A stretch of DNA of 43,853 bases from an uncultured Spirochaetota bacterium (GTDB lineage Bacteria > Spirochaetota > Spirochaetia > Treponematales > Rectinemataceae), in the NCBI GenBank assembly GCA_903821875.1, contig CAIJMU010000113.1:1-43853 (forward strand), in the 5' to 3' direction. Under the pieces are notes generated by a model, which worked only from the letters and a program-made list of their open reading frames with translations, had not been told where the DNA came from and did no database searches. Shown in pieces: positions 4,961-31,655 of the stretch (position 1 is the first letter of the stretch; each line of letters begins with the position of its first letter). The position numbers were made by a program, and so were the translations under genes.

Positions 4961-4990
4961 TTGTACTTAAAATGCTGATTCGGCTATACT
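4961..4990 (+). promoter_or_regulatory. Promoter upstream of the terminase genes
   Basis: TTGTAC (4961-4966) and TATACT (4985-4990) are separated by 18 bases. It lies in the only sizeable non-coding gap before the packaging genes. Confidence 0.6.
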
Positions 4991-5038
4991 GAAACTGACG
5001 GGAACCTGAATAGCACATTGGCGCCGAGTCGAAGGATC

Positions 5039-5082: not shown

Positions 5083-5102
5083 ATTGCACGAGGGATGAAT
5101 GG

Positions 5103-5282
5103 ATGATCTGCAAGAGGTGTGGCGAGAAGGTGAAGTACATTCCGAGCGCCAACACGGAGGAAATCCACATCGTAGACGACGCCCTTGTAATCATCATCAC
5201 GAACACCGGGCGCGAGGCCAGGGGATACCTTCGCCATCAGTGTAAGGATGGAGCGTCGGCTGATGCCCAGAAAGAAGCCTGA
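5103..5282 (+). CDS. Small cysteine-knuckle protein before terminase
   Basis: This 59-residue product begins MICKRCGEKVKYIPS and has one later cysteine (RHQCKDG). The CKRCG knuckle suggests zinc binding. GAGG lies about 9 bases before the ATG. Its last 20 bases overlap the likely terminase small subunit start in another phase, so the two may be translationally coupled. It is easily missed because it is shorter than 60 residues. Function unknown. Confidence 0.5.
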   Translation: MICKRCGEKVKYIPSANTEEIHIVDDALVIIITNTGREARGYLRHQCKDGASADAQKEA

Positions 5283-6055: not shown

Positions 6056-7633
6056 ATGGCTGTAACAGGCAAGCTCTGGACGCCGGAGGAGCGACTTAAT
6101 TACATCGACGCCTTCATCAAGGTAGACGGGAAAGACATCGACTTGGACTTTTGGCAAGAACATTTCATCAAGTCCAATTTCAAGTATTCCGTGCTCTTGA
6201 AGTCCCGGCGCACCGGGTATTCATTCGCGACAGGCCTCAAAGGCTTCGTGAAGGCCATGGACCCGGCCAGGATTAAATACGTCAAACAATTCGTTTCTTA
6301 CAACGAAGATGATGCGAAAGAAAAAATCAACTATGTCAAGGAATTCTATAACAGCATCCAGAAGAAATACAAAAAGAAGATCATTTCAGACACCAAAACG
6401 CAACTTGAGTTCTTGGATGCCAACGGGAAAACGACGAGTAGGCTTATTTCCATTGCCTGTCGCCCGCCGCGCGGTAAGGGCGGGGACATATCCTTCGACG
6501 AAATGGGAATCTATCCTGCCAACAAGGCACGGTTGATCTATACGGCAGGCCTTCCTGTCATTGCCCGAGGCGGATGCGTGGAGGCGGGAAGTACGCCCCT
6601 GGGGAAGATCGGGACCTTCTACGAGATTTGGATAGACAAGAATAAATATCCTGAGTATGCCCGCTTCAGTGTTCCTTGGTGGTTCTCTTCGTCTCTCTGC
6701 ACCAATGTCGATGAAGCCGTGAAACTTTGCCCGAACATGGATACCGAGGACCGGGTTATGCTGCTGGGCAGCGAATCCCTGAAAAGCATCTTCAACTCCA
6801 TGTTCCTTGAGGACTTCCAGCAAGAATTTGAGTGCTCCTTCGTCGATAGCGCCAGTAGCTACATCACCCTCGACCTGATCCATGCCAACACGCCGGGAAT
6901 GAGGCCGGAAGACCGAGAGGCGGAGCTTGGGGATGAGGACGAGGAGTCCGACATCGAAATCCATGTCTTCAAGGATGTGGACTCCCTCCTTCTCGGCTAC
7001 GATCCGGAGGTGCATGGCCGGATATACCTCGGCTATGACGTGGCGCGGCGCCGCGACGCGGCCGTGGTCTTCGTCATCGGCATCACGAAGGACGGGAAGA
7101 AGCGGAGCGTGGCTGAGATCGAGATGACCAACAAAGAGTTCGAGTTTCAACTCGATGTGATCAGGAAGATCATGAAGAACCTGCCCGTGGTTCGTGGTTC
7201 CATGGATCAGACAGGCCAGGGTGAACCCCTCTGCGAGACTCTTCAGAAAGAGTTCGGAGCCGCCAAGATCGAGGGTGTGATCTTTAGCCCTGAGTCCAAG
7301 GAGATGCTTGCGATCGGGGTACGCTCGGGCCTGGAGAAGAGAGAGTTCCTTCTCCAGAACGATCCCAAATTCCACAAGCAGATTCATTCCATCAAGAGGA
7401 TGACAACCATTGCGGGTAGATTCCGCTATGATTCTCAAAGGGATGAACAGGGCCACTCTGATAGCTTTTGGGCTTGGGCATTGGCAAATTCTGCCATAAT
7501 CGATAGCGTCAAAACATCCGGCGGCGGGTTCTACGGGCAGTATTCCAAAAGCAAAGATGGTGCCAAAGTAGAAAAAGCCCCAAAATACGCAACTCCAGCC
7601 ATTCTGTCACGAATTGGGAGGATTAGGTCATGA
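6056..7633 (+). CDS. terL: Terminase large subunit (packaging ATPase-nuclease)
   Basis: The 525-residue product has a deviant Walker A, KSRRTGYS at residues 49-56, a Walker B DISFDEMG (144-151, with Asp148-Glu149), and a C-terminal RNase H-like nuclease domain with acidic residues at YLGYDVARR (Asp328), MDQTGQG (Asp384) and HSDSFWAWAL (Asp469). This is the motor that translocates DNA into the prohead and cuts the concatemer. GAGG lies 6 bases before ATG 6056. The stop overlaps the portal start (ATGA). A 13-codon frame starting at 6024 sits in the gap but is too short to call. Confidence 0.93.
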   Translation: MAVTGKLWTPEERLNYIDAFIKVDGKDIDLDFWQEHFIKSNFKYSVLLKSRRTGYSFATGLKGFVKAMDPARIKYVKQFVSYNEDDAKEKINYVKEFYNSIQKKYKKKIISDTKTQLEFLDANGKTTSRLISIACRPPRGKGGDISFDEMGIYPANKARLIYTAGLPVIARGGCVEAGSTPLGKIGTFYEIWIDKNKYPEYARFSVPWWFSSSLCTNVDEAVKLCPNMDTEDRVMLLGSESLKSIFNSMFLEDFQQEFECSFVDSASSYITLDLIHANTPGMRPEDREAELGDEDEESDIEIHVFKDVDSLLLGYDPEVHGRIYLGYDVARRRDAAVVFVIGITKDGKKRSVAEIEMTNKEFEFQLDVIRKIMKNLPVVRGSMDQTGQGEPLCETLQKEFGAAKIEGVIFSPESKEMLAIGVRSGLEKREFLLQNDPKFHKQIHSIKRMTTIAGRFRYDSQRDEQGHSDSFWAWALANSAIIDSVKTSGGGFYGQYSKSKDGAKVEKAPKYATPAILSRIGRIRS

Positions 7634-9345
7634 AGCACATACCCCAAGAGGAACTTCTTTCCTTTCTCGCGAAGGCCCATGTCGTCAAGAAGGATTCCCG
7701 CGCACTCGTGCCGACGCGACAAGTCCCTGAGCAATCCGTCGAGCCGATCAAGTCGGTAACGCTCAATCCGTTCAACCGCCTCATGTACCGGGGCAGCCGG
7801 AACATCGTCGAGCCGAACCGGAAGCTGGACTATCGGGTCCTTCGCGTCGTCGCGGAACGGGCATGGATCATCAATGCCATCATCGGTCATCAGATAAGGT
7901 CGGCGAGACCGTTCATGAAGCCATCGACCGACAACAACATCCGGGGATTCCAATTGCGGCTCAAGGACAAGGACCGCTCCCCCTCCGCGCGCGAGAAAGA
8001 GCTCATGAAGGTCTATACCGAATTCTTCCTCAACACGGGCTATGGAAGCGATCCAGGCAGGGAAGACGATATGACAGCTTTCTCGGCCAAGGTCATTCGC
8101 GACCTTCTCACCCTTGATCAGGTCACGACGGAGCTTCAGAGGACCCAGGTTCGGAAGGTCTACGCCTATTGGGCGGTGGACCCGGCCACGATCTTTAAGT
8201 GTTCTGAGGAAGGGTACAACGGCGACGATAGGATCAGGTATATCCAGGAGGTCGACCTCGCCATCACCGCGTACTACTCGCGGGATGACCTCATTTTCGA
8301 CTACCAGAATCCCCGGACGGACGTGAACCATTCGGGCTACGGCTATTCCGTCGTCGAACAGGCGATCGACCTCATCACGGGCATGATCAATTCTTTCATG
8401 TACAACATGGGCTTCTTCACCGAGGACAGGCTCCCGCGCGGAATGCTCCTTCTTCAGGGCGACGCGGACATGGAAGAGGTGGAGATGATCGAGGACTATC
8501 TCGTGAACATCATGTCGGGTGGTCCCATGTCCAAATGGCGTGTCCCGATCATCCCGGCAGGTAACGGCGGGTCGGGGGGCGAAGGCAGGAAGTTCGAATG
8601 GGTATCTCTTCAGGGGTCGAACAAGGACATGGAGTTTTCCCAATGGACGGAATTCCTGTGGTCCAGCGTCGCGGCATTGTTCGGTATCGACCTTGAAGAG
8701 CTTGGTATCAAGACTTCCAAGAGTACGTCTGTCATACCCGAAAACTCGGCGCCGAGGATCGAGGCATCGAAGTCGCACGGGCTGGGATCGGTGCTTTCGT
8801 TCCTCGAAGCGCACTATCAGAAGATCCTCGATCGGCTCGACCCGCGATTTGATTTCGAGTTTCTTGGCTACGAAAGGGACGATCCTAGCCTAAAGAACGC
8901 GACGCGGGAGGCGGAGCTCCGGACCTTCAAGACGATCGACGAGCTTCGCGCCGAGGCGGACCTGAAGCCCTTCGGCGAGGACTGGTCAAAGGTTCCCCTC
9001 AATCCCTACGTCGTCCAACTCATGCAATCCGCCCAGGGCCAGGCCGGGGGCGAGGCGGGCATGCCGCCCGGAGCCGAGGAGTATGGCGCGGGTGGCGAGG
9101 AGGGGGATGACCCCTCGGCGGCCTACCGCAAGCTCCTCATGGACGAGGGGCAGGAGCCCGAGGAGGGCGGCCAGAAGCCCGCGCAGACGGGCGAGCTGAC
9201 TGGGCAGGCAGGGGGCCGAAGGCGCTCCGGCGGCGGAAGCACCGCGCCGACGGGCGAAGACGGCGCTTCGGGCGGGGGCAAGCGGAGCATTTACGATTCC
9301 ATAGGGAAGTCCATCAGGTCTGACGTGATTGAGATCATCGTCTAA
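7630..9345 (+). CDS. Portal protein
   Basis: The 571-residue product follows terminase with a 4-base overlap, the usual portal position. It shows the pattern of HK97/SPP1-type portals: an N-terminal region with LDYRVLRVVAERAWIINAII, a central VYAYWAVDPATIF, and SSVAALFGIDLEELGI in the C-terminal half. It would form the dodecameric ring at the packaging vertex through which DNA enters and leaves. The last 110 residues are low-complexity (Gly, Glu, Pro, Ala) and probably disordered, possibly lining the head interior. Confidence 0.88.
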   Translation: MKHIPQEELLSFLAKAHVVKKDSRALVPTRQVPEQSVEPIKSVTLNPFNRLMYRGSRNIVEPNRKLDYRVLRVVAERAWIINAIIGHQIRSARPFMKPSTDNNIRGFQLRLKDKDRSPSAREKELMKVYTEFFLNTGYGSDPGREDDMTAFSAKVIRDLLTLDQVTTELQRTQVRKVYAYWAVDPATIFKCSEEGYNGDDRIRYIQEVDLAITAYYSRDDLIFDYQNPRTDVNHSGYGYSVVEQAIDLITGMINSFMYNMGFFTEDRLPRGMLLLQGDADMEEVEMIEDYLVNIMSGGPMSKWRVPIIPAGNGGSGGEGRKFEWVSLQGSNKDMEFSQWTEFLWSSVAALFGIDLEELGIKTSKSTSVIPENSAPRIEASKSHGLGSVLSFLEAHYQKILDRLDPRFDFEFLGYERDDPSLKNATREAELRTFKTIDELRAEADLKPFGEDWSKVPLNPYVVQLMQSAQGQAGGEAGMPPGAEEYGAGGEEGDDPSAAYRKLLMDEGQEPEEGGQKPAQTGELTGQAGGRRRSGGGSTAPTGEDGASGGGKRSIYDSIGKSIRSDVIEIIV

Positions 9346-9357: not shown

Positions 9358-10113
9358 ATGTTACTGGTAATACGAATCGCGAAAGAATGGCTGGAGAAGG
9401 CGCAGAAGAGCGCGAAGCTGGTACCGGAGCAAAGGACCATCCATCGGGGAGCCTCGACCTACACGGCTACGGTCTGGGTCGATCCAACCGATAAGACAGC
9501 TCCGACCCAGCACGGGTTTAGTTTTGATGAGCGAACAAAAGGGAAGCCCAAGCCAGCTTCCGTAGGCAACAAGGAAAGCCACGAGGAAAGCCCCGGTTCT
9601 CGCGCCGCTAGCGAGGCATACGACGAGCTGATGGCTGAGGCGTCGTCGGCAAACGTCCCGATCAAGCGTCACAAGGTAGCCGCAGACAACCTAGACGACT
9701 TAGACGACTTAGACGACTTTGATCCGGAAGAAGACCTTATACGTCGCACAAAAGAGAAATATCCAGGCATAAAGTTGGAAGAGAAAAAGGAAACTCCAAA
9801 GCCTGCGGGCCGCTGGACCGATTTATCCCTGCCTGCTCCCAAGGCAGGAGTGCCAAACAAGACCATCGAAGACACTCTTGCCACGATCAGGGACCATTCA
9901 AGCGGGGCACTGGCGCAATATGCGGGTTCCAGCCAGTACGAGGACATCGACAAGTTCCGCGACAGCGCCGCCCAATGGGCCTATGAAAACAACAAGATCG
10001 GGAGCGCTGCGAAGGTATTCGACGAGTATGCAAGAAGCAGGGGGCTCAGGAAGTCGATCCTTGGCCCTGTTGCATCGTTTGTGCAGGAATGGATCAGGAA
10101 GTCTAGGCGGTGA
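9358..10113 (+). CDS. Virion-associated protein with shared N-terminal tag
   Basis: The 251-residue product opens with a hydrophobic segment then WLEKAQKSAKLVPEQ and TATVWVDPTDK, matching the N-termini of the proteins at 12081 and 19698 and, more weakly, 18061 and 10110. The middle is charged and low-complexity, including LDDLDDLDDFD made by a near-perfect 12-base DNA repeat. The C-terminal 90 residues are helical and basic (FVQEWIRKSRR). Excellent AAAGGAGG lies before the ATG. Its position between portal and MuF suggests a head-internal protein. No enzymatic motif is seen. Confidence 0.7.
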   Translation: MLLVIRIAKEWLEKAQKSAKLVPEQRTIHRGASTYTATVWVDPTDKTAPTQHGFSFDERTKGKPKPASVGNKESHEESPGSRAASEAYDELMAEASSANVPIKRHKVAADNLDDLDDLDDFDPEEDLIRRTKEKYPGIKLEEKKETPKPAGRWTDLSLPAPKAGVPNKTIEDTLATIRDHSSGALAQYAGSSQYEDIDKFRDSAAQWAYENNKIGSAAKVFDEYARSRGLRKSILGPVASFVQEWIRKSRR

Positions 10114-10676
10114 CAACGGCCGTGCTCTGCATCCAACTAGAAAAGTCCCGCAAGAAGAAGGGGCGTCTTCCTTTCAAGATCATCACGTTCAAGGATGGGA
10201 GGCGGGAGAAGGTTTACTACATTCCGAAGAACCCGAACCTTCCCCTTGTCCGTGCTCCAGCAAACACGTTTTCAGGCATAGAAAGCATTCGGGATATTCA
10301 GAAGAAAGTCCTTTTGTTCGCCCGGAATACTATGCAGGGAAAGCTGTTCAAGAATATCGACACGGGATACGAAATCAGGATTTCGAGGGATGGCATAGAT
10401 GAGGTTCTGTCACATGCCTCGAAAATCGACCATTGTCTTTCCATCATGGTGATTCCGAAAATACTGGAACAAAGCAAACTTCTATCCGTCGAGCCGGACA
10501 AAAACGGCAATGAGAACGTGAAGGCCATTTATAGAATGCGCTGTCTTTTGGAGATAGGGCAAAAACACTATGTTGTGGAATCGGTAATCAAGGAAACCGT
10601 CGAGGGGAAGAAATACTACGACCATCACTTGATAAAAAAGGAGCCCGCGAGTGGGGGGGCTCATTCTCATGATTGA
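10110..10676 (+). CDS. LPD3/BECR-like domain protein
   Basis: The 188-residue product starts with GTG overlapping the previous stop (GTGA). After a short basic segment related to the shared tag (QLEKSRKKKGRLPFK, then KVYYIPKNP), the body reads LFKNIDTGYEIRISRDGI, HCLSIMVIPKILEQS, NENVKAIYRM and KETVEGKKYYDHHL. This fits the large polyvalent-protein-associated domain LPD3 and its relatives with a Barnase/EndoU/ColicinE5/RelE-type fold, found in phage MuF and polyvalent proteins. Some such domains are RNases, but no catalytic triad can be assigned by eye. Likely packaged into the head and delivered with DNA (inference). Confidence 0.65.
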   Translation: MTTAVLCIQLEKSRKKKGRLPFKIITFKDGRREKVYYIPKNPNLPLVRAPANTFSGIESIRDIQKKVLLFARNTMQGKLFKNIDTGYEIRISRDGIDEVLSHASKIDHCLSIMVIPKILEQSKLLSVEPDKNGNENVKAIYRMRCLLEIGQKHYVVESVIKETVEGKKYYDHHLIKKEPASGGAHSHD

Positions 10677-10708
10677 GAACCATAGCCACTCCCCGATGTT
10701 GCGGGCTC
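10641..10708 (+). terminator. Nested inverted repeats after the LPD3-like gene
   Basis: GAGCCCGC (10641-10648) and GCGGGCTC (10701-10708) form an exact 8-base inverted repeat enclosing a second perfect hairpin TTCTCA-TGAT-TGAGAA (10664-10679) over the stop codon. There is no U tract, so it may stabilise or process the mRNA rather than terminate it. Confidence 0.4.
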
Positions 10709-10743
10709 ACTATGAGTATATCGCTACCTAAACGAGGTTGCAA

Positions 10744-12084
10744 GTGGAATACCGCCTGTCCGTCATGGACGTGAACGACGTGAACCGCCGGGACAAGTAC
10801 CTGTCGGCGGTCAATTCCTTGGCCAAGGCCATGAAGGTCCCCGTCACCCTGAAGCCACGAAGCGAGCATGTCGAGCGCTTTCCCTACCGATCCTATGAAG
10901 ACCTCGTGCAGAAGTGGACCTTCATGTACGCGGGCCTCCTCGATCGAATCTACAACACCGCCTGCCATGCCTTCGACCTGCCGCGAATCACAACCTTCAG
11001 CAAGGCCGCCGACACCGATCCGCTCATCTACAAGGGTAAGATTCTCTACACGCCCGAGACGGGGAAGCCGATCACCCAACGTCAATGGCGGGAATTCGTC
11101 GTCTCAATCGAGCGATTCCTGAACCGAGGCCTGCGCGGCGCCGAGGAGCGCATGGTCCTCGATGCCGTCGCCCTCGGGAAGGTCCTCGACCGGATGCTGA
11201 AGTACAACTCGTGGGAAGCGGTGGAGGCCAAGCGCCTCGAAGAACTGGAATACTGGCGCCACAAGTTCGAATACATGTCCGACCCGGCCAACTACCGGCG
11301 CCTCTTCGGCGTCTCCGATTTCGAGGCCGACAGGATCAAGGTCGCCGAGGAGTCGTGCGCGCAGTACATCCGGGACATAGACTCCAAGACCAAAAGCACG
11401 ATCAATCAGGCCTTCATTTCGGGCATCAGGGAAAGGAAATCCAAGAGCGAGGTGGCGCAAGACCTCTTTGACCGCTTTGGCTCCCTGAACCGGGACTGGC
11501 AGCGCATCGTCGAGACGGAAGTCAACGAGAACATGAACACGGCCTTCCTGGTATCCGAACGTTCGGATGCGAAGGCGGGCGAAAAGCTCTATTTCCAGCG
11601 CTACGAGGTTCTAGACGACGCTACCTGCGCGCATTGCAGGCGCATCCAAGGCGCCGTGGTGCTGTGGTCGGACGAGGCCCTGGTCGACGAGAAGATCAGC
11701 GACCCCTACGCTACGGTGGCGATATGGGAAGGGAAGACACGGATCGGAAAGAAGGGCGGCGACGAGTGGATCGCGGCGGGGGCTCAGCATCCATGGTGCC
11801 GAGGCAGTTGGGCGCGGTGGGCGCCTCCGGCCGAGGAGGGCAAGCCCAGCCTCTTTGACGCAGCCATGGCGAAGCTGAAGGGCCGCGAGGCCGCATGGGG
11901 TGCGGCGGTGGGGAAGGCGAAGGCCGAGTTCACCGCGAAGGGCATCACGCGCCTGGACGACACGACGCCGGGCTACCGCGAGCGAATCAATGAGCTCTAC
12001 CGCGATTCGGGAGCCGCTGACGGCGGGAAGTGGGCGGAGGACTGGTTCAAGGACAATCCGGCCAAGGAAGGGGGAGGGGAATGA
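10744..12084 (+). CDS. MuF-type minor head protein with C-terminal extra module
   Basis: The product (446 residues) contains the phage Mu F-like domain: RIVETEVNENMNTAF around residues 255-270, the metal-type CAHC (295-298), and HPWCRGSW (349-356), the hallmark Cys/His pattern of Mu gpF / SPP1 gp7 proteins. These minor head proteins sit near the portal and aid DNA delivery. Residues 367-438 form an added module that is repeated as a separate gene at 202-528. I chose GTG 10744 because CGAGG lies 6 bases upstream; TTG 10738 is the outer limit and ATG 10765 is another choice. The stop overlaps the next start. Confidence 0.85.
   Translation: MEYRLSVMDVNDVNRRDKYLSAVNSLAKAMKVPVTLKPRSEHVERFPYRSYEDLVQKWTFMYAGLLDRIYNTACHAFDLPRITTFSKAADTDPLIYKGKILYTPETGKPITQRQWREFVVSIERFLNRGLRGAEERMVLDAVALGKVLDRMLKYNSWEAVEAKRLEELEYWRHKFEYMSDPANYRRLFGVSDFEADRIKVAEESCAQYIRDIDSKTKSTINQAFISGIRERKSKSEVAQDLFDRFGSLNRDWQRIVETEVNENMNTAFLVSERSDAKAGEKLYFQRYEVLDDATCAHCRRIQGAVVLWSDEALVDEKISDPYATVAIWEGKTRIGKKGGDEWIAAGAQHPWCRGSWARWAPPAEEGKPSLFDAAMAKLKGREAAWGAAVGKAKAEFTAKGITRLDDTTPGYRERINELYRDSGAADGGKWAEDWFKDNPAKEGGGE
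11842..12057 (+). repeat. 72-codon module also found inverted at 205-420
   Basis: This segment encodes the C-terminal module of the MuF protein. The differences from the inverted copy cluster in its centre, while the last 38 residues differ at only two conservative positions. That suggests recent duplication or gene conversion of its 3' part. Confidence 0.85.
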
Positions 12085-15000
12085 GCATATTTCGGCGCTT
12101 CGTCATGATTCCGATACAGGGAGTGCTCGAAAAGGCACGCCATAGCGCCCGCCTGGTACCGAAAAGGATCATCCTCACGAACGAGGATGGAACCACCTAC
12201 CCTAAAACCGTCTGGGTCCTCCCCGCTGAAGCCAAGGCGGAGAAGCCGCGTGCTGGCCAGTTCGACCTGTTCGACGAAGGGCCGGCCGAGGCTCCACGGC
12301 TCAGGGTGGAGAGCCCGCACGCGCCGATTCCTGCTGTCGCGAGGCCTATTGTGGAGGAGAAGCCGATTGAAGCCCTGCCGGAGGATGATCGGCGGGAAGC
12401 TTCCCCCGACGACGTAGCGCGGCGTAATCTGGCCCTGGCGATCGAGGAGACCCCATTCCGTGACTACGGATCGTGGGTTGGGAAGGGGAAGCATCTGAAT
12501 CCTTCCGCCCGCGCGAAGCTCAATCAGGAGGTGGCCGGGCTCCTCCTCAAGGTGCGCGATGAGCTTTCCGAAGAGGACGTGGAGAAGATTCGGAAGTATT
12601 CGGGCTTCGGCGGCGTGAAGGCGGACGATGAGCGCGGCGTCCTTTATGACTTCTATACCTCTCCGCCCGTGGCGAAGATGACCTGGAAGATGCTGGACAA
12701 GGTTTCCCTCGTTAAGGCAGGAGAATCGGTGCTTGAACCATCCTGCGGCACCGGCGTCTTTTTCGAGGTGGCCCCGGAAGGGCTTGAGCTCCACGGTGTC
12801 GAGCTGGACGGGCGCACGGCCGCCGCCGCTTCGATCGTCCAGGAGGGGGCGGCCATTCATTCGGGCAGCTTCGAGCAATTCAACCTCCACAATCGGAAAG
12901 CCTTCTCCCGCGTGATCGGGAATGCCCCGTTCGGCGATCGATCCGTCCAGACTGCCTTCATGGACATGCCCGAGGAGAAGAGCCTCGATCGGTACTTCCT
13001 CTCGCGGTCGCTCGATGCTCTCGCGGATGGCGGCTCCATGGCGCTGATTGTTCATCCGGGAGTCATGGACGGGAAGGGGAATCGCGAATGGCGGGCGGAG
13101 CTGCTGAAGAAAGGGCAGTTCATGGGCGCGGCGCGGCTCCCGAACGGGTCCTTCAAGCATACCCAAACCGGAGTTCAGCCCGACATCATCTTCTTCAGGA
13201 AGTACCCGGAAGAGATTCGGGGCCGCCTTGGGCAACTCGACGAGAAGGGGCTGAAAGAGGCCGGATTCTGGAACGACGGGTGGGTGGAGGGTTCGTATTA
13301 CGAGGGAAAGCCGAAACACATACTCGGGAATCTGAACGAGGGGGGCGGAAACTGGGGTCGCGACGTGGTGGAGGGCGATCTTACCCTTGCCGACATGGAC
13401 GAGGCTGTCGCGCGTTTCGAGCCCGAAACCGAAAAGACCACGGAGGACCTAGAACGCCTTCGCTCCATGACGAAGACCCCCGGCGAGGCCTCGGGGCGCA
13501 AGAAGGGCGACGAGACGACGCTGACCGAAGCCGAGGCGGAGGCTGTCGCGGCCAAGACCCTGGCCGTCGGGGCGACGAAGAGCGAAGACGGCCGCGTCTA
13601 TCGGCTGAACGCCAACCATCGCTGGGAGCGGGTGAAGGGCGCCGATGAGTTGGCGGCGGAGAAGCTTGAACAGGTCAAGGCGATAGCAGAGAACGTGAAG
13701 GCGATCCGTGATGCCATGCGCGACTCGGCGCCCGTCGATGATCTTCAGCGGGAGACCAGGCGCCTCATCCAGGCCTACGAGGAGGCCTATGGAGCGGCCC
13801 CGAAGGACGACAAGGATATCAGGAAGCTCCTCAATGCGACCGCCTCGCTTTCGGGGGTCTATGAAGGCCTCGTGGGGATCGATGACGGTATCCTGACGAA
13901 GCAGAACGTCTACGCGAAGGAAATCGAAATTATCGACGGCCACAATCCCGCCGTCACGGCGCTCCTTACCCTTCAGCGCAACATGGTCGATGCCATGCCC
14001 GAAGCCCTCCGCGCCTATTTCCCGAATGACATAGACAGCCTCATGGTCTCCCTGCAAGAAAGCGAGGACGCTTTCCTGACATACGACGGATGCTGGCAGC
14101 TCCGCGAGGATTTCATAGCGGGGAACGCATGGGAGAAGGTGGATGGCCTGAAAAAGGCCCTCGCCGATCATTCTGGCGACAAGTGGAAGGGCGAACGCGA
14201 GAAATGGCAGCACGGTATCGACGAACTGGAGAAGGCGGCCGGTTGGGTCCCGATCGAGGAAGCCGAGTTCACCCCTCAGTCTTCATGGATTCCCGAGGAG
14301 ATCATCGACCGCTGGGCAAAAGCCAGCGAGGGCATGAGATACGGGGGCGAATTCACCGGCAAGACGCTTTCGAGAAATGAGGAAGGGAAGTGGGGTGTCG
14401 AGTACGACGAGGACAAGCACATTCGGGGAAAGAATTGGCGGGACCCCGGACACTACATCGACGCGGGGGAATGGCAAGAGCTCAGCCATGAACTCGTCTA
14501 CTTCCTGAACATGCAGAAGCAACGGTCGAAAACAACCGACACGGAGACATTCAACCGCAACGCAGAGGACAACTTCAAGGCATGGGTGTCGAACAATGCC
14601 GAGGTCCGAGAACAGCTTGAAGGCCTTTTCAATCGGAAGTTCAACGCCGAAATAGGGGCGCCGACGAAGACCTACTCGGTGAACATCGATGGCTGGAATC
14701 CCGACGTGAAGATTCAGCCCTGGCAATGGCAGACCATCCATCATCTCTACCGGCAAGGGAAGGGCATCACGGCGCTCGGCACCGGCTTCGGGAAGACCTA
14801 TGCGGCAATCTGCCTCATGGCGCTCCTCCGGCAAGAGGGCAAGCTGAAGCGGCCCATGGTGCAGGTCCCGAACAACAAGGTGAAGGACTGGGTGAAGTAC
14901 ATCGCTCGCTCGATGCCGGGCCTCAAGGTCGGGGCTGTCGATCCTGAATCCGAGGGATACGCGAACCAAGCAAAGCGGTACAAGATGTACCAGGACCTGG

Positions 15001-17600
15001 CCAACGGCGACTTTGACGTGATCATCCTCCCCGAGTCGGCCGCCTCCGAGATTCAGCTCCGGCCCGAGGAGGATCAACGCATCACGGATGAGATCGTGGC
15101 GGGACAGATCATGGACAAGGCCGCCGCAAGCTCCCGGAAGGTGGAGCAAGCGAAGGAATCGGCGCGCGGGAAGCTCGAAGCCGGAAAGACGAACCAGACC
15201 ATCAATTTCGAGGACTTCGGCTGTGACGCCTTGTTCGCCGACGAGGCGCACAACTACAAGAACCTCTTCAGCTCAAGCCTTTCCCGCGAAACCGGGATGA
15301 ACGACGGGCGGCGTTCCGATCGCGCCCTCAGCTTCTTCAAGAAGAGCGAGCATATCAGGCGCGCCCATGATGGGAAAAACGTTTTCCTCCTCACGGCAAC
15401 GCCACTCACGAATAGCCCGCTCGAATACTACAACATGCTCATGCACGTGGCTCCCGAAACGCTCGAAACCCTGAACATCCACAACATCGACGACTTCATC
15501 CGCAATTTCGCCGATATCGAAGTCGGCCTGAAGTGCGACTGGGGAGATGGGAAGCCGAAGGAAGGGCGAATCCTAAAGGGCTTCAAGAACCTGCGGACCC
15601 TTCAGGACATGTTCTTCAAGTACACCGACCTTCAGAATGATCCGACGAAGATCGGGCTTCCCAAGCCAAAATCAGAGAATCATCCGAACGTGATACCCAT
15701 GCAGGCGGAGCAATCGGGGGTCTTGCGGGGCATATCAGAGGAGCTTGAGAAGTACAAGATGATGTCGAAGGAAGAGCGAGCGGGGAGCAAGGAGAACTTC
15801 CTGACGTTCTATACCCGCATGCGCACGGCCTCCCTCGACCTCGAATTGTACGATCCCACGGGGCACAAGGGCTGGAAGAATCCCAAGCTCGAAACGCTCG
15901 CCCAGAACGCCATAGACAGCTTCAAGGCGACGGGGGGCGGGCAAGTGGTATTCTGCGATCGAGTTGTTTCCGGGGACGGTTCCTTCAACCTTCACGACAA
16001 GATCAAGGCTGAACTGGTGGCCAAGGGCTTCAGCGAATCCGAAATCGTCGTGGTGAACGGAATCACGAAGTCGGGCGGAAAGAAGAGCGACACCGCCCTG
16101 GAGCATGAGGTCTCGGCCGCGATCGACGGATTCAACACGGGGAAGTACAAGGTCATCATCGGGACGACTCCGACCATGGGCGAGGGCGTCAACCTCCAGA
16201 AAAACAGCGCCGCCCTCCATCACTTCGACATCCCCTACCGTCCCTCGGACTTCATCCAACGGAACGGCCGCGTCGACAGGCAGGGCAACAAACAGGGCAT
16301 GGTGGCGCTCCATACCTATCTCGCGGCCGGCACGATCGACAACTACTCGGTCAATCTCGTCCAGAGCAAGGCGAACTGGATCGATCAGCTCCTCAGAACC
16401 AAATCGAACGTCTTCACCAATCCGAACGACGACTCCTTCATCGATCCTGATGAGCTCCTTCTCGCCCTCACGGAAGAATGGGGGGACAAGGAGAAGACGG
16501 GGGAGCGACGCGCCGAAATGGAGAAGGTGAAGGCAGGGAAATTCAAGGAAGCGAATGCTGACAAGGTTCACGCGACGCTCGCGAGCCTCAGCCTCATGCG
16601 CGGGTCGATCAAGGGCTTCGAGGGCGACAAGGGGACGGTCCAGTATCAGAACCGCCTGCGGAAGCTCTACAACATGGAGGAATCCCTCCGCAACAATCCC
16701 GAGTTCAAGAATCTTGAGCTTCTTGCCGATGATCCTCCCGAGTTCATCTATGACAAGACCGCGAGGAGGGTCTACAAGCCCGGCGACGCATTCATGCTCA
16801 GGAAGGGGCTCTACGTCGTCACCGACATCAACCACAAGAAGCAGACGATGCACTGCAAGCCCGCATCGCAGGAAGGAAGCGGCTGGAATTCCGAATGGGA
16901 GGAATGGAAGCAGGGGGAAGGTATTGGAGGCGGAAAGAACCCCGTCCATCTCGCCAGCCCTACGAAAGCCGACATCAGGAAGCTCGGCTCCCTCTATTCA
17001 CCGGAAGATTTCAGCAAGCAGGGGCAGACGTTCAAGCGAGACCGATACCGAGACATGCTGAAATACTCGGGCAAGGACGTGCATTATTTCAGGATGGACG
17101 ACGAGGGCAAGGTCCATCTCACTTCAAAGCGCTGGGATTTCAAGACGAAGGATGCCGACGAGGCCTTAAATCCCTATCGCCCCGAAGACCATGCGAGGAT
17201 CATCGCGGCAATCAGGTCTGATGAGGCCGAGACAAGCGGCGATGCCGTCTCCGATCCGGTATTCGAGGAGACGGGCATTTCCGAGGTCCTTCGCGAGCCT
17301 GCCATGAGGGAGTACCGCGCGAACCCCGCAGCCGAGTTTGTCGATGCCCTGGCGTCGACCTACTGGAAGCCCGTCGATGATGTGGTAGACCGGATGAAGC
17401 GGAAGGGCATTACCAGCCATTCTGGCGCCTGGGAGCTGAAGGAGATCATCGCCAAGAATCCGGAGTACGAGGTCAAGTACGACAAGTCCTACGGCGGAAG
17501 GTCGGGGGTCGCGTTCCGCAAGCGCCCGACGGTCGAAAAGGCGATCCGGGCGATATACCGGAAGCCCGCCCGATTGGTTATAATGAGGAAGGAGGGCTAG
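12081..17600 (+). CDS. DarB-like N6-methyltransferase / SNF2 helicase polyvalent protein
   Basis: The 1839-residue product begins with the shared tag (LEKARHSARLVPKR, KTVWVLPAE, then FDLFDEG). An adenine-N6 methyltransferase domain follows: AdoMet motif LEPSCGTGVFF (from Leu218) and NAPF (281-284) in place of NPPF/Y. A superfamily 2 helicase domain follows: GTGFGKT (900-906), DEAH (1054-1057), LLTATPL, and RNGRVDRQ (from Arg1394). The C-terminal 400 residues carry further uncharacterised polyvalent-type segments. This is the layout of phage P1 DarB and relatives, packaged proteins that protect injected DNA from type I restriction. Start ATG 12081 overlaps the MuF stop with a purine-rich site upstream. 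Confidence 0.88.
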   Translation: MSIFRRFVMIPIQGVLEKARHSARLVPKRIILTNEDGTTYPKTVWVLPAEAKAEKPRAGQFDLFDEGPAEAPRLRVESPHAPIPAVARPIVEEKPIEALPEDDRREASPDDVARRNLALAIEETPFRDYGSWVGKGKHLNPSARAKLNQEVAGLLLKVRDELSEEDVEKIRKYSGFGGVKADDERGVLYDFYTSPPVAKMTWKMLDKVSLVKAGESVLEPSCGTGVFFEVAPEGLELHGVELDGRTAAAASIVQEGAAIHSGSFEQFNLHNRKAFSRVIGNAPFGDRSVQTAFMDMPEEKSLDRYFLSRSLDALADGGSMALIVHPGVMDGKGNREWRAELLKKGQFMGAARLPNGSFKHTQTGVQPDIIFFRKYPEEIRGRLGQLDEKGLKEAGFWNDGWVEGSYYEGKPKHILGNLNEGGGNWGRDVVEGDLTLADMDEAVARFEPETEKTTEDLERLRSMTKTPGEASGRKKGDETTLTEAEAEAVAAKTLAVGATKSEDGRVYRLNANHRWERVKGADELAAEKLEQVKAIAENVKAIRDAMRDSAPVDDLQRETRRLIQAYEEAYGAAPKDDKDIRKLLNATASLSGVYEGLVGIDDGILTKQNVYAKEIEIIDGHNPAVTALLTLQRNMVDAMPEALRAYFPNDIDSLMVSLQESEDAFLTYDGCWQLREDFIAGNAWEKVDGLKKALADHSGDKWKGEREKWQHGIDELEKAAGWVPIEEAEFTPQSSWIPEEIIDRWAKASEGMRYGGEFTGKTLSRNEEGKWGVEYDEDKHIRGKNWRDPGHYIDAGEWQELSHELVYFLNMQKQRSKTTDTETFNRNAEDNFKAWVSNNAEVREQLEGLFNRKFNAEIGAPTKTYSVNIDGWNPDVKIQPWQWQTIHHLYRQGKGITALGTGFGKTYAAICLMALLRQEGKLKRPMVQVPNNKVKDWVKYIARSMPGLKVGAVDPESEGYANQAKRYKMYQDLANGDFDVIILPESAASEIQLRPEEDQRITDEIVAGQIMDKAAASSRKVEQAKESARGKLEAGKTNQTINFEDFGCDALFADEAHNYKNLFSSSLSRETGMNDGRRSDRALSFFKKSEHIRRAHDGKNVFLLTATPLTNSPLEYYNMLMHVAPETLETLNIHNIDDFIRNFADIEVGLKCDWGDGKPKEGRILKGFKNLRTLQDMFFKYTDLQNDPTKIGLPKPKSENHPNVIPMQAEQSGVLRGISEELEKYKMMSKEERAGSKENFLTFYTRMRTASLDLELYDPTGHKGWKNPKLETLAQNAIDSFKATGGGQVVFCDRVVSGDGSFNLHDKIKAELVAKGFSESEIVVVNGITKSGGKKSDTALEHEVSAAIDGFNTGKYKVIIGTTPTMGEGVNLQKNSAALHHFDIPYRPSDFIQRNGRVDRQGNKQGMVALHTYLAAGTIDNYSVNLVQSKANWIDQLLRTKSNVFTNPNDDSFIDPDELLLALTEEWGDKEKTGERRAEMEKVKAGKFKEANADKVHATLASLSLMRGSIKGFEGDKGTVQYQNRLRKLYNMEESLRNNPEFKNLELLADDPPEFIYDKTARRVYKPGDAFMLRKGLYVVTDINHKKQTMHCKPASQEGSGWNSEWEEWKQGEGIGGGKNPVHLASPTKADIRKLGSLYSPEDFSKQGQTFKRDRYRDMLKYSGKDVHYFRMDDEGKVHLTSKRWDFKTKDADEALNPYRPEDHARIIAAIRSDEAETSGDAVSDPVFEETGISEVLREPAMREYRANPAAEFVDALASTYWKPVDDVVDRMKRKGITSHSGAWELKEIIAKNPEYEVKYDKSYGGRSGVAFRKRPTVEKAIRAIYRKPARLVIMRKEG

Positions 17601-17987
17601 GTGATGTTCTACGACAATGATTTCGTGGATGGCCTTGTCGCCAAGCTCAAGGTTCCGGGCGGCGACGACTACGTGAAGCGCACAGCCCTCACGATCGGCG
17701 ACATGCTGAAGAAGAACCCGCGAATCTACAAAAGCTTCGGGGTCTATTGGTGGGCCGTGAAGGATGCGCTCAGGCGGTACTACCCGGACAGCGACGAGTG
17801 GTTCACAGGTTCGTACAGCGACGACCTGACGAAGGAGCGCGCCTGGCACGGGGACCTTTTCAGGACGGTCCTAGCGGGGACGTACTACCACGGGCGCCAG
17901 ACTTCATATTCGAGCGACCATTCATGGACCGACGAGAAGGGCGTCGATCATGACTACACCCTTTTCGACGAGAACGCTGGATTCTAA
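17601..17987 (+). CDS. Hypothetical protein in the polyvalent cassette
   Basis: The 128-residue product is rich in Asp, Tyr and Trp (YKSFGVYWWAVKDALRRYY in the middle). It starts GTG 17601 or ATG 17604, with AAGGAGG just upstream, directly after the DarB-like gene. YYHGRQTSYSSDHSW near the end is unusual, but no family is recognised. Its tight spacing suggests it is made with the large protein before it and may assist it. Confidence 0.65.
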   Translation: MMFYDNDFVDGLVAKLKVPGGDDYVKRTALTIGDMLKKNPRIYKSFGVYWWAVKDALRRYYPDSDEWFTGSYSDDLTKERAWHGDLFRTVLAGTYYHGRQTSYSSDHSWTDEKGVDHDYTLFDENAGF

Positions 17988-17992
17988 GCTGA

Positions 17993-18017
17993 AGGGGGCG
18001 CCGATGGGGCGCCTCCT
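17993..18017 (+). terminator. Strong hairpin without U tract
   Basis: A 10-base stem (17993-18002 with 18008-18017, core GGCGCC on both arms, one G-U pair) with a 5-base loop lies between two genes. Lack of a U run argues for an mRNA stability or processing element. Confidence 0.45.
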
Positions 18018-18060
18018 CGTCCTAGAGAAAAACACTTTACCAAACTGCATGGAGGACGAC

Positions 18061-19626
18061 ATGCCCGGATTATTCATCAGGAAAGCGGCGGATGTATCCG
18101 TTGGGATTCCTGTCACGAGTCTCATGGCGAAGGCGCTGAATACGAGTCGGCTGGTCCGAAAACAGGTGACGGTGAATCGCGGCGGGAAGACGTTTCAACA
18201 GTACAAGTGGATGAAGCCGGGCGAAGCTGGCACGCCTACACCCGGAGGCCCAAAGACTGATCCGGAGGAAGCTCGGGGAAGCAAACATGGGTATGGCATG
18301 CACCGAATAGAGAACGGCGACGAAATCACCTTCAAGAGCAACGGTGTGGTGGTCAGGGGAACCGTCGTAGATGACGAATGCCACGATGGGGTCGTCGTCA
18401 AGGATTCCGAGGGGCGAACGCATCCTGTCGAATGGAAGGACATCACGGGCTACAAGGGGAGACGCCGAGGAAAGGACGGGGGAGGCGGGAAGGGTGGCGG
18501 CGGAGACGGTGGTGGAAACGGCGATGACCCCGATTCCGACAAGCCCGATCCCAGGAAATCCTATATAGAACCCGGAACATTTCACGCCGACTCATGGGCC
18601 GCGCAGTTTGATGATCCGACCATTACCGGGAAGTCGATATTGGAAAAGATCGAGGGCAAGAATCCCGGAACAATCGAGGCGATCGAGAAGACGGAAAAGC
18701 GGCTGGAGAACCTGGAGCAAACGATAGGCGGCTTCCGTGTTTCGGGCAAGGATGCCGAGGCTGTCTACACCAAAGAACGCCAGCGCCTGCATGACAAGAT
18801 ATTGGGCACCATCCTGTCGCCCAAAACCGTTGTAGGTGCGATGCCTTCGCCAGGAGAAAAGCCGGTTTTCATCATGCTTGGCGGGCGAGGAGGGTCTGGA
18901 AAGTCGTGGTTCGAGGGCAAGGTTTACGATCCCGCCAAGGTCATCAAGCTCGACGCCGACGAGATAAAGGGAATGCTCCCCGAATACGAGGGATGGAATG
19001 CGGCGCAGATTCATGAGGAATCGAGCGACATTCTCGAAAAGGTACTCGTCGAGGCTAAAAAGAATGGCTTGAATGTGGTGCTCGACGCGACGATGAAGAC
19101 CGAAAAGAGCGCTCTGAAGAAGATCGATTATTTCAAGGATGCCGGGTATTCGGTCGAAGCTCACTACATGCACCTTCCAAGGATCGGGGCTGCCGAACGG
19201 GCGGTCATGCGGTTCATGGGAAAGACGAAGCGCTATGTCCCTGTCGATGTCGTCCTGGCTAATACGACAAACGAAGCGACCTTTGACAAGGTTCGGCAGC
19301 TCGCCGATACGTGGAGCTTCAGGGACAACGACGTGAGCATGGGGCAGGAACCCATTCTCATTTCCAATCAGGGGAAGGGTAGATTTGGAGCCTTCCTGAA
19401 GGCGCTCCTTTACAAGTCCATGGCGAGGGCCATATACTCAAAGAGGAGGATGTCAATGGCCAAAATGCCGAGTCCACAAGAGCGCCCCGACATCTACGAC
19501 GAATACGACAACGGCGACGTGACCCCGGATGAGAAGCTTGCTCCCGATGTCAAGGCGGGAATCGAGAGGGTCGGAGCGATTGTCGAAAACGCCAAGAAGA
19601 AGAGGGCCGCCGAGTCTTCCAAGTAG
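18061..19626 (+). CDS. Zeta-toxin-like P-loop kinase with shared tag
   Basis: The 521-residue product opens with a variant of the shared tag (LMAKALNTSRLVRKQ, FQQYKWMKPGEA). A small beta-rich part and a glycine-rich linker (about residues 140-165) follow. From about residue 265 it has FIMLGGRGGSGKSWF with Walker A at 275-282, then IKLDADEIKGMLPEY and LNVVLDATMKTEKSA, the order seen in zeta toxins and related kinases (P-loop, DxD, LDAT). Zeta toxins phosphorylate UDP-N-acetylglucosamine and block cell-wall synthesis; other relatives act on small molecules or RNA ends. There is no adjacent epsilon-type antitoxin. GGAGG lies 5 bases before ATG 18061, fixing the start. Confidence 0.78.
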   Translation: MPGLFIRKAADVSVGIPVTSLMAKALNTSRLVRKQVTVNRGGKTFQQYKWMKPGEAGTPTPGGPKTDPEEARGSKHGYGMHRIENGDEITFKSNGVVVRGTVVDDECHDGVVVKDSEGRTHPVEWKDITGYKGRRRGKDGGGGKGGGGDGGGNGDDPDSDKPDPRKSYIEPGTFHADSWAAQFDDPTITGKSILEKIEGKNPGTIEAIEKTEKRLENLEQTIGGFRVSGKDAEAVYTKERQRLHDKILGTILSPKTVVGAMPSPGEKPVFIMLGGRGGSGKSWFEGKVYDPAKVIKLDADEIKGMLPEYEGWNAAQIHEESSDILEKVLVEAKKNGLNVVLDATMKTEKSALKKIDYFKDAGYSVEAHYMHLPRIGAAERAVMRFMGKTKRYVPVDVVLANTTNEATFDKVRQLADTWSFRDNDVSMGQEPILISNQGKGRFGAFLKALLYKSMARAIYSKRRMSMAKMPSPQERPDIYDEYDNGDVTPDEKLAPDVKAGIERVGAIVENAKKKRAAESSK

Positions 19627-19633
19627 TTAGGTC

Positions 19634-19660
19634 AGGCGCTCCTTAGCGGGCGCCTCTTTT
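19634..19660 (+). terminator. Rho-independent terminator
   Basis: AGGCGC (19634-19639) pairs with GCGCCT (19650-19655) around a loop, followed by CTTTT. It lies 8 bases after the kinase gene stop and would reduce read-through into the next gene. Confidence 0.65.
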
Positions 19661-19697
19661 ACAAAAACGCGTCCTTACGCCTTACTCGGAGGTTTCC

Positions 19698-21866
19698 GTG
19701 CCTGAAATTCGCAATTTGATCATACGATTCGTCATTCCGCTCCTCGAAAAGGCACGGCGCAATCCCAAGCTGGTTCCCAAGAAGATGGTGGTGACTCGCG
19801 AGGGCACGGCATATTCTACGACGGTATGGGTGCTTCCCGGAGAAGCCGCAAAAGAAAAGCCGCTCGGGGTTCAATTTGACATGTTCGCCGAGGCGGAGAT
19901 AGACGAAGTGGCTCGCAAGAAGAGATTCATCAACCTCCTGTCGGCTGGAACCTCGGTGGCCTTCAAAGACAAGGGTGGGAACCTAAAGACTGGCAAGATA
20001 GCCCTTGGCGGGCTATTGCAGGTTGTATGCGACGGTGATCTCGTGGAGATAGAACCGGAGGCTATCGCTGAAGTGTTTCCTGAGAAAGAACCCGAAAAGA
20101 TCGCCCGAATCATGGCTCAAGCTAGTCCCGAGACGCGGGCTGCCACCGAGGCTGAGCTTTGCGGTGCGAAGATTGAAGAGAAAGCCCCCGAGGCCTATGA
20201 GTTCGAGCCTCGGCGCGTCGAGGGCACGCATGACTACCTGGACTACCGCGACGTGATTCCGGTCAAGATCGGCCTCATTCCCGACAAGGACATCCTGAAA
20301 AGGAAGCGGCCGGGCTGGATGCCTGAGATCGAGGACCGTCACTTCGGTAGTTCAGGCCATCGCATCGAAGCGGCCAAGCTCGACGACGGCGACTACATGG
20401 TGTTCCTCGGGAAAGGCCCTGGCTTGGGCATCATCCATGCTCGGGTAGGCGTCGACGTTCTCGCGGCCATGCAGGACTACTACCTGAAGCGGGCTAAGGC
20501 CCTAGGAAAGGAGCGGGCCACGGAATATGCCCGGCTCTATCCGGGCAGCAGGCGGCGCGCCCGGGCCATCCGGATGCTGGGGGAGAATCGGGCCATGCCT
20601 TCAACCCTCGCCCTGGCATCGGATTTCCTTGGGGCGCAAGGTGGCGCGCGGTGGGCGCCCGTCCGTGAGGCGATTGCGGACATGAAGCAGAAGCTTTCCG
20701 ACATGAACATCCAGATCGAGGAGAACTATTCGGCCTACGCCAAGGGGCAGGAGACGGCCTACGGAAACTCGGGCACGCGGAAAGACCTCCTCGATGAATA
20801 CGGCGTTCTTGTCAAGCGCCAGAACGGTGACGCGATCAACAAGAAGGAGATCGATGAAATCAGAACCGCCCTGGACGCGGTGTACGGCGTCTACGGGAAC
20901 CGGGCGAGCATGGCCAAGGGCTTCGGGCTCAAGGTGAGCCATTCGGGCAAGGTCCTCATGCACGCGCGAAACGCGGCGGGCATCTACTTCCCCTCTCACC
21001 GGGCGATCGGCGTTACCATGCGGAACGGGGAGATGGGCTTCGGCTTCACCCTAGCACATGAGTGGGCGCACTTCATGGACAACTACCTCGGCTCGAAGGG
21101 CGGGCGCCACTTTTACGCATCGGACGATTGGTCCTCTCTGCCGGGCAAGATCGCCCGGACCTTCCGGTCCAACATGGCGTCGCCCCAGAAGTCCGACTAC
21201 CAGAACCGGACCTGCGAATGCTTCGCTCGAGCCCTCGAACAGTTTTTCGCGACCAAGAAAGGGAACCAGGCTGAATACCAAGCCCAGTGGAACGGGAAGG
21301 GCAACCATCCCCGGCAATCGGTCTATGAAGCGACGGTCCTCCCCCTCGTCGATAGGTTCTTCGAGGAAGATGATGAGCTCTTGAAGGCCTTCCGCCTCTC
21401 CCGTTCTCTGACATGGAGCGGCCACAAGCTTCAAGGCAGAATGACGCTTCACGGTATGGAAATCAGCATCGAGAACCGGAAGGGAAGCGTGCGTCGGGGC
21501 GTGGACAAGGATGGCCACGAATGGGAAACGAAGATGCACTACGCCTACGGCTATGTGCGCGGGACCGTCGGGAAGGACAAGGATCACCTGGATTGCTACA
21601 TAGGGCCTGACCCTGAATCCGAAAAGGTCTTCGTGGTTCATCAGAACGATCCCGTGACGGGCAAGTACGATGAGGACAAGACCATGCTCGGCTTCAACGA
21701 TGCCGCCGAGGCCAAGGCTGCCTACCTGAAGCAGTATGACCGCCCCGGCTTTTTCGGAAGCATGGACGAGACGAGTATCGAGGCCTTCAAGCGGGAGGCG
21801 TTCAAGAAAGCGAATCATGGAAAGAAGCTCATCGTGAAGAGCGGAGGGGTATCGTGGCCGAGCTGA
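19698..21866 (+). CDS. Polyvalent protein: tag, HExxH (LPD1-like) and pyrophosphatase-like domain
   Basis: The 722-residue product starts with GTG, CGGAGG 5 bases upstream. Residues 1-60 are the clearest example of the shared tag (LLEKARRNPKLVPKK, TTVWVLPGEAAKEKP, FDMFAEAE). The middle carries TLAHEWAHFMDNYLG with HExxH at 454-458 and, 50-60 residues on, CFARALEQFF, whose glutamate could complete a zincin-type site; this resembles the LPD1 domain of phage polyvalent proteins. The last 150 residues (ISIENRKGSVRRGVDKDG, DHLDCYIGPDPES, KTMLGFND, YDRPGFFGSM) match the inorganic-pyrophosphatase-like domain of the same protein class. Likely packaged and injected (inference). Confidence 0.8.
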   Translation: MPEIRNLIIRFVIPLLEKARRNPKLVPKKMVVTREGTAYSTTVWVLPGEAAKEKPLGVQFDMFAEAEIDEVARKKRFINLLSAGTSVAFKDKGGNLKTGKIALGGLLQVVCDGDLVEIEPEAIAEVFPEKEPEKIARIMAQASPETRAATEAELCGAKIEEKAPEAYEFEPRRVEGTHDYLDYRDVIPVKIGLIPDKDILKRKRPGWMPEIEDRHFGSSGHRIEAAKLDDGDYMVFLGKGPGLGIIHARVGVDVLAAMQDYYLKRAKALGKERATEYARLYPGSRRRARAIRMLGENRAMPSTLALASDFLGAQGGARWAPVREAIADMKQKLSDMNIQIEENYSAYAKGQETAYGNSGTRKDLLDEYGVLVKRQNGDAINKKEIDEIRTALDAVYGVYGNRASMAKGFGLKVSHSGKVLMHARNAAGIYFPSHRAIGVTMRNGEMGFGFTLAHEWAHFMDNYLGSKGGRHFYASDDWSSLPGKIARTFRSNMASPQKSDYQNRTCECFARALEQFFATKKGNQAEYQAQWNGKGNHPRQSVYEATVLPLVDRFFEEDDELLKAFRLSRSLTWSGHKLQGRMTLHGMEISIENRKGSVRRGVDKDGHEWETKMHYAYGYVRGTVGKDKDHLDCYIGPDPESEKVFVVHQNDPVTGKYDEDKTMLGFNDAAEAKAAYLKQYDRPGFFGSMDETSIEAFKREAFKKANHGKKLIVKSGGVSWPS

Positions 21867-24873: not shown

Positions 24874-24928
24874 AGGTTTTGGCAGGCGGAGCCTGGCGCG
24901 ACGTGGTTTCATAGAATAGGAGATACCG

Positions 24929-30078: not shown

Positions 30079-30126
30079 CTGAAGCAGTACAGTATCAGTA
30101 GAACTTCCGGCGTCGAATGGAGATTC

Positions 30127-30160
30127 GGGCCGCATACCCCTCGGGGCGTGCGGCCCTTTT
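30127..30160 (+). terminator. Terminator-like leader hairpin before the protease gene
   Basis: GGGCCGCA (30127-30134) pairs with TGCGGCCC (30149-30156), with an inner CCCC/GGGG stem, followed by TTTT and soon by TTTTT. It stands between the promoter and the gene it should serve, so it is an attenuator or the 3' end of a short RNA. The preceding sequence (GGCG, TCGAA, GGA, TCGGGCCG) resembles the leader at 5020-5044. Confidence 0.65.
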
Positions 30161-30185
30161 CGTTTTTCCGGCGCCATGGAGACGC

Positions 30186-31640: not shown

Positions 31641-31655
31641 GGAGGGAAGAGCAAT

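What the first reader, a model, noticed from the sequence alone, without database searches (positions are those of the whole stretch)
9358..19850. Shared N-terminal tag on different polyvalent proteins: candidate capsid-loading signal
The proteins starting at 9358, 12081 and 19698 all begin with a hydrophobic turn, then LEKA(R/Q)...(K/R)LVP(K/E), then a beta segment ending in TVWV(L/D)P. The 12081 and 19698 proteins also share EKP and FD(L/M)F. Weaker forms open the 18061 (MAKALNTSRLVRKQ, YKWMKPGEA) and 10110 (LEKSRKKKGRLPFK, VYYIPK) proteins. The attached enzymes are unrelated: MTase-helicase, kinase, HExxH/pyrophosphatase, LPD3-like. One signal on many cargoes next to portal and MuF genes is what a packaging tag would look like. 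The sharing is seen; the loading role is inferred.
Basis: partly seen in the sequence, partly recalled or inferred. Interest (0 to 1): 0.75.

Follow-up and report, generated by a model that had tools for sequence, protein, structure and literature searches.

The report
Shared tag on phage head cargo proteins
Four unrelated proteins in this prophage's head-gene region begin with the same roughly 45-residue module, which also occurs, sometimes several times per phage and sometimes inside longer proteins, on other phage proteins encoded near head genes, so it is probably an undescribed address label that puts anti-host proteins into the virus particle.

Summary
Those starting at 9358, 12081, 18061 and 19698 share an N-terminal module: hydrophobic helix, LV(P/R)K, then a beta-hairpin ending W(V/M)xP. 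The similarity is far beyond chance (z 12-27). The fifth (10110, LPD3) is not significant. A profile trained only on this phage group finds the module in unrelated phages (Exiguobacterium EalM-132, Lysinibacillus LysYB1, Bacillus SIOphi, Thermus Lalka and Cumys) at 22-41 bits against a shuffled maximum of 9. It sits on at least eight cargo types, in or beside packaging and head-gene clusters wherever the genes around it could be read. Across phage groups, tags resemble the other tags of their own phage more than tags on the same cargo elsewhere. In relatives the module also occurs inside fused proteins, up to three per chain, so it is not strictly N-terminal. The neighbouring DarB-Ulx pair matches phage P1, where a DarB N-terminus is a proven capsid signal; P1 DarB itself lacks this module. 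A capsid-loading tag is the best reading (about 0.57), but no packaging was tested. A second, unreported feature: several tags end in Q-x-[DNS]-[LM]-F, which matches the sliding-clamp-binding motif. Pfam has no model for the module.

The parts
9358..9486 (+). Tag module on protein A (251 aa, cargo unknown): MLLVIRIAKEWLEKAQKSAKLVPEQRTIHRGASTYTATVWVDP
10110..10241 (+). Possible degenerate tag on the LPD3 protein; not statistically supported
   Evidence: 1.8-2.9 bits, E 0.2-0.45
12081..12224 (+). Tag module on the DarB-like N6-methyltransferase-SNF2 helicase (12081-17600)
12258..12272 (+). QFDLF, clamp-binding-like motif after the tag
   Evidence: consensus QL[S/D]LF from PMC3919608
17601..17987 (+). 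Ulx-like anti-restriction gene directly after the DarB-like gene, as in phage P1; no tag
   Evidence: (phrog_1629, E 2.6e-14)
18061..18219 (+). Tag module on the Zeta-toxin-type kinase (18061-19626), after a conserved MPGLFIRK start
19698..19838 (+). Tag module on the HExxH metallopeptidase-InPase protein (19698-21866)
19872..19886 (+). QFDMF, clamp-binding-like motif after the tag
28058..28072 (+). QGDMF in the untagged SNF2-type helicase 24929-29836; position kept in relatives (QGDMF, QVDMF)
7630..9345 (+). Portal gene next to the first tagged gene (context; its N-terminus is not a tag)
10738..12084 (+). MuF-type minor head protein between tagged genes (context)
30117..33071 (+). Head maturation protease (30117-31640) and major head protein (31656-33071): head module (context; protease or scaffold is a candidate tag receptor)

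Best explanation
The shared module is a transferable capsid-loading tag. An N-terminal hydrophobic or amphipathic helix, a basic LV(P/R)K turn and a beta-hairpin ending W(V/M)xP dock each carrier protein onto one phage-encoded head component (prohead scaffold-protease, portal or MuF interior) during prohead assembly. Different effectors (DarB-like anti-restriction enzyme, kinase, metallopeptidase-InPase, RelA/SpoT-type and others) are thereby packaged and delivered with the DNA. When genes fuse, each segment keeps its tag, so the tag also appears internally. Shown: the module, its spread over unrelated cargoes, its head-gene setting, the resemblance of tags within one phage. Inferred: docking, packaging, injection and the identity of the receptor.
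For: (1) Significant sharing on four unrelated proteins in this window. (2) A profile trained on this phage group only finds it in distant isolated phages at 22-41 bits, shuffled maximum 9. (3) Context: five copies in Exiguobacterium phage EalM-132 (one weak), all between terminase and portal in a whole-record search; beside portal in LysYB1; after portal and minor head protein in Cumys; in the head module of this window and its relatives. (4) Tags of one genome resemble each other across cargoes (0.54-0.56 in G549 and EalM-132) more than the same cargo's tags across phage groups (0.33; background 0.31), permutation p 3.5e-4, as expected if one receptor per phage is recognised. (5) P1 DarB: the N-terminal 30 residues suffice to package a reporter (PMC9024508); here a DarB-like protein carries the tag and is followed by a Ulx-like gene. 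(6) Cargoes are of the type proposed to be packaged polyvalent proteins (PMC5512222). (7) Bacillus SIOphi gp35 carries a divergent copy (23.9 bits); its Staphylococcus homologue RS_088 was found by LC-MS/MS in purified fRuSau02 particles (PMC5618024), and the segment is, by eye, the best conserved part of that family.
Against: No virion proteomics was found for the window phage or close relatives. RS_088 itself scores only about 3 bits, and that preparation also held non-structural proteins (ribonucleotide reductase, holin). The tag occurs inside fused proteins, unlike T4 and P1 signals. P1 and D6 DarB lack it, so it is not universal for DarB packaging. The helicase 24929, the Ulx-like protein and MuF lie in the same cluster untagged. 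Tags in one genome could resemble each other through recombination rather than a common receptor. Head-gene linkage alone would also fit other late functions.
Confidence: 0.57

Rival explanations
1. The module acts in the newly infected cell, not in assembly: a targeting or docking unit for injected proteins, with its Q-x-[DNS]-[LM]-F tail binding the host sliding clamp (DnaN) so that the enzymes act at the replication fork or on incoming DNA.
For: Q-x-[SDNTG]-[LM]-[FW] occurs 16 times in 41,498 residues of relatives where about 2 are expected, and all 16 lie in tag tails or in helicase H. The motif is kept while linker length and flanks change (WVLPGEASHAAQFDMF against WVLPGEAAKEKPLGVQFDMF). 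The consensus is QL[S/D]LF with positions 1, 4, 5 most important (PMC3919608). The host DNA polymerase III alpha candidate carries QVSLF.
Against: The motif is missing from the kinase and RelA-type tags and from this window's protein A, so it cannot be the function of the core module. The helicase has the motif without the tag. No binding was tested.
Confidence: 0.16
2. The module is a junction element in polyvalent polyproteins, for example a site where a head protease or an encoded metallopeptidase separates segments before or after packaging.
For: In G197, G198, G680 and a Hydrogenedentes MAG the module sits at junctions between segments of 1281- to 1584-aa or longer chains, up to three per chain. 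Metallopeptidase domains are common here; PMC5512222 proposes autoproteolysis for P1 DdrB.
Against: Free-standing single-domain proteins keep the full module at their N-terminus, where separating segments serves no purpose. Conservation covers helix and hairpin, not one short cut-site-like motif. The segment shared by protease and major head protein does not occur in the tag.
Confidence: 0.12
3. The module is a shared assembly domain that joins the effectors to each other or to MuF in a complex, with packaging only a by-product.
For: All carriers are co-encoded and tags in one genome are alike; P1 Dar proteins are incorporated stepwise (PMC9024508).
Against: Some phages carry a single detectable tag (LysYB1, Lalka, SIOphi, Cumys), leaving no tagged partner to bind.
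Confidence: 0.1
4. The resemblance is chance, or only a leftover of recent gene duplication.
For: The C and E tags are the closest pair (score 150).
Against: z 12-27; DNA diverged while protein is kept; leave-out detection in distant phages.
Confidence: 0.02

Closest known systems
P1 DarB N-terminal capsid-targeting signal (PMC9024508)
   Same: N-terminal signal on a DarB-type methyltransferase-helicase followed by a ulx gene; sufficient to carry a reporter into the head
T4 capsid targeting sequence of internal proteins (IPIII; cited in PMC9024508)
   Same: One short N-terminal signal that sends cargo into the prohead and can carry foreign proteins
   Different: T4's is a short peptide cut by the gp21 protease (own knowledge); this module is about 45 aa with a predicted beta-hairpin, occurs internally, and no cleavage is shown
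Polyvalent proteins (Iyer et al. 2017, PMC5512222)
   Same: Same cargo domains: methyltransferase-helicase, metallopeptidase, InPase, RelA/SpoT, LPD domains; predicted to be packaged
   Different: The passages read describe no shared N-terminal or junction module; Pfam has no model for it
Bacterial sliding-clamp binding motif QL[S/D]LF (PMC3919608)
   Same: QFDLF, QFDMF, QLDMF, QGDLF, QADLF in tag tails fit positions 1, 4 and 5
   Different: Found on phage effector proteins rather than polymerases; binding untested

Membership tests
Capsid-targeting sequence (T4/P1 type) | Located at the N-terminus of packaged proteins | tested here: inconclusive
   N-terminal on free-standing proteins, internal in fused proteins and at about aa 300 in EalM132_00044
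Capsid-targeting sequence (T4/P1 type) | Necessary and sufficient for packaging into the head | not testable with these tools
   needs reporter fusions and virion proteomics
Capsid-targeting sequence (T4/P1 type) | Sequence match to P1 DarB N-terminus | tested here: not met
   no match of P1 or D6 DarB to the tag profile
Capsid-targeting sequence (T4/P1 type) | Removed by the head protease | not testable with these tools
   no cleavage data; no shared short cut-site motif noticed
DarB-like antirestriction protein (12081) | N6 DNA methyltransferase plus SNF2-type helicase in one chain | tested here: met
   Pfam N6_Mtase 3.7e-10, Helicase_C, SNF2-rel_dom; DarB-like phrog_10089 1.6e-109
DarB-like antirestriction protein (12081) | Followed by a ulx gene | tested here: met
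   17601-17987, phrog_1629 E 2.6e-14
Polyvalent proteins | Effector-type domains encoded with phage head and packaging genes | tested here: met
Sliding-clamp-binding motif | Q at position 1, L/M at 4, F at 5 | tested here: met
   host DnaE-like QVSLF
Sliding-clamp-binding motif | Binds DnaN | not testable with these tools
   needs a binding assay

The most novel reading that the evidence does not exclude
A so far undescribed, widespread helix-plus-beta-hairpin domain is a general phage cargo-import module that works at N-termini and inside polyproteins, and in one phage group it is coupled to a clamp-binding motif that sends the injected enzymes to the host's sliding clamp after entry.
Probability: 0.25. 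Interest if true: 0.85.

Novelty: new variant of a known kind. Interest (0 to 1): 0.68.

Why it matters
How phages choose which proteins go into the head is known for few systems. The P1 Dar study looked for a common signal among Dar proteins and found none (PMC9024508). A module recognisable by sequence on many cargoes in several phage groups would let packaged effectors be predicted from genomes alone, make the loading question testable in isolated phages of laboratory Thermus and of Exiguobacterium, and offer a new address label for protein delivery by phage heads. The clamp-motif tail would give a first idea of where such effectors go after entry.

Tried and rejected
Portal N-terminus (helix then LVP) as a fifth tag carrier: no match to the profile. 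P1, D6 and Bordetella PHB04 DarB or neighbours as carriers: no significant match to the window-group profile; a marginal PHB04 hit (E 0.002) was not used. Weak hits in G187, G210, G262 and G338 (G187) were not used; they lack convincing reading frames or contexts. Solved structures: no hit. AlphaFold2 of the full 722-aa protein: pLDDT 47, not used; tag alone: helix 3-19, strands 26-34 and 37-45 at pLDDT 61, only suggestive. A search for relatives of an EalM-132 tagged protein found none. Virion data for Thermus Lalka or EalM-132 were looked for in papers and not found.
Full report
CHECK OF THE OBSERVATION. The window is contig C113 of a 4.68-Mb draft genome and holds a contractile-tailed prophage: terminase, portal, MuF, head maturation protease, major head protein and tail sheath are recognisable. 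The N-termini at 9358 (A), 12081 (C), 18061 (D) and 19698 (E) share a module of about 45 residues: hydrophobic helix, (L)xKA, LV(P/R)K, a beta-hairpin and W(V/M)xP. Pairwise scores are 73-150 against shuffled means near 22, and no other window N-terminus comes close to them; the doubtful 10110 reaches at most 39. Only these four copies are significant in the whole host genome. The LPD3 protein at 10110 is not significant. DNA similarity between the four is small or absent, so the protein likeness has been kept by selection rather than by recent copying.

DISTRIBUTION. A profile from the window group (A2) was tested on phages not used to build it. It finds four strong copies and one weak copy in Exiguobacterium phage vB_EalM-132, and one each in Lysinibacillus phage LysYB1, Bacillus phage SIOphi, Thermus phage Lalka27a (on a DarB-like protein) and Thermus phage Cumys, at 22-41 bits for the strong ones; shuffled proteins reach at most 9. 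Genomes of the same phylum carry more. Across 197 related genomes it is rare and, where genes around it could be read, it lies in phage-type gene clusters. Pfam has no model that matches the module. Several PHROG families match it near their N-terminus (phrog_25452 positions 5-45, E 1.8e-5; phrog_27103, phrog_4162, phrog_16218), and one is annotated as virion structural protein (phrog_1917); all but the first are weak matches.

CARGOES. The module is found on: protein A and its relatives (no known domain), DarB-like methyltransferase-helicase, Zeta-type kinase, metallopeptidase-InPase, RelA/SpoT-type protein (Pfam E 2.2e-10), ParB-like protein, PARP-type ADP-ribosyltransferase (E 2.6e-14), a 206-aa protein among connector genes, and a RadC-containing polyprotein.

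INTERNAL COPIES. In IMG/VR contigs G197 and G198 the D-position and E genes are one reading frame with two internal tags. A 1514-aa frame in G680 carries three, and a Hydrogenedentes MAG has a 1584-aa protein with one clear copy, one weaker copy and one doubtful copy. So the module marks the start of each segment rather than only the start of the chain.

CONTEXT AND CO-VARIATION. In EalM-132 all five copies lie between terminase (24398-26041) and portal (46445), within about 20 kb of a 146-kb genome searched whole. In LysYB1 the tagged gene is next to portal, in Cumys it follows portal and minor head protein. Tags within one genome are alike across unrelated cargoes (G549 0.555, EalM-132 0.541, window 0.38), while tags on the same cargo in different phage groups are hardly above background (0.334 against 0.310); label permutation p 3.5e-4. 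Within one phage group, orthologous tags are the most alike (0.561). The tag thus follows the phage more than the cargo over long distances, which is what a signal read by one receptor per phage would do; recombination between copies is an alternative.

MECHANISM. The best reading is capsid loading. Phage P1 gives the closest experimental precedent: the first 30 residues of DarB carry a reporter into the head, and the authors found no common N-terminal consensus among Dar proteins (PMC9024508). Here the DarB-like gene is followed by a Ulx-like gene, the same pair as in P1 and in Thermus Lalka (PMC11437467), and the DarB-like protein shares its N-terminal module with its neighbours. P1 DarB has no match to the module, so the comparison is of function, not of sequence. 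Virion evidence is indirect: SIOphi gp35 has a divergent copy; its Staphylococcus homologue RS_088 was detected in purified particles (PMC5618024), but RS_088 scores only about 3 bits and that preparation also contained non-structural proteins.

THE Q-x-[DNS]-[LM]-F TAIL. After the hairpin, DarB and InPase tags, the 206-aa protein and some A-type proteins carry QFDLF, QFDMF, QLDMF, QGDLF, QGSLF, QADLF or QVDLF. In relatives there are 16 matches to Q-x-[SDNTG]-[LM]-[FW] in 41,498 residues, about 2 expected, all in tag tails or at one position of the untagged helicase. In the window the pattern occurs three times in 14,072 residues of listed frames, at these same places. The linker before it varies in length. 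It fits the clamp-binding consensus QL[S/D]LF, positions 1, 4, 5 most important (PMC3919608), and a host DNA polymerase III alpha candidate carries QVSLF. Copies are related, so the count is not a set of independent events. Binding is untested and the kinase and RelA-type tags lack it, so it is treated as a separate attached motif.

LIMITS. No proteomics, no receptor, no cleavage data; the structure models are poor.

Noticed in passing
window 202-717 (-) and 10738-12084 (+): A reverse-strand ORF near the contig start repeats the last 72 residues of the MuF protein at 82% identity (E 2.6e-38), with a weaker match to an earlier part of MuF (31%, E 7e-5).
   Followed up: partly
window 30117-31640 and 31656-33071: The head maturation protease and the major head protein share a segment (AGFATDSSAMTGGRAMIPSD / AGYGTDAAAMTGGRALIPED, E 5e-8), possibly a common processing or scaffold-contact site.
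   Followed up: partly
L030 9923-12253 and L011 around 4900-6000: In IMG/VR contig G197 the MuF protein and the InPase domain each contain an intein-like insert (start C, Hint-like DTEVLT / DTKILT, end N-C).
   Followed up: no
window 24929-29836: The large untagged SNF2-type helicase has its own conserved N-terminal motif (GARWITVHPNGAEDGTPIMIQDTG) kept in relatives, which may be another module of this kind.
   Followed up: no
L059 13755-19979: The Thermus Lalka27a DarB-like protein carries QPALF, QPTLW, QPTLW before its tag, perhaps repeated weak clamp-type motifs.
   Followed up: no
window 3749-4120 and 34222-35661: HNH-like nuclease reading frames, one overlapping the C5-methyltransferase-like gene at 2848-4233, the other between head-tail connector genes.
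   Followed up: no
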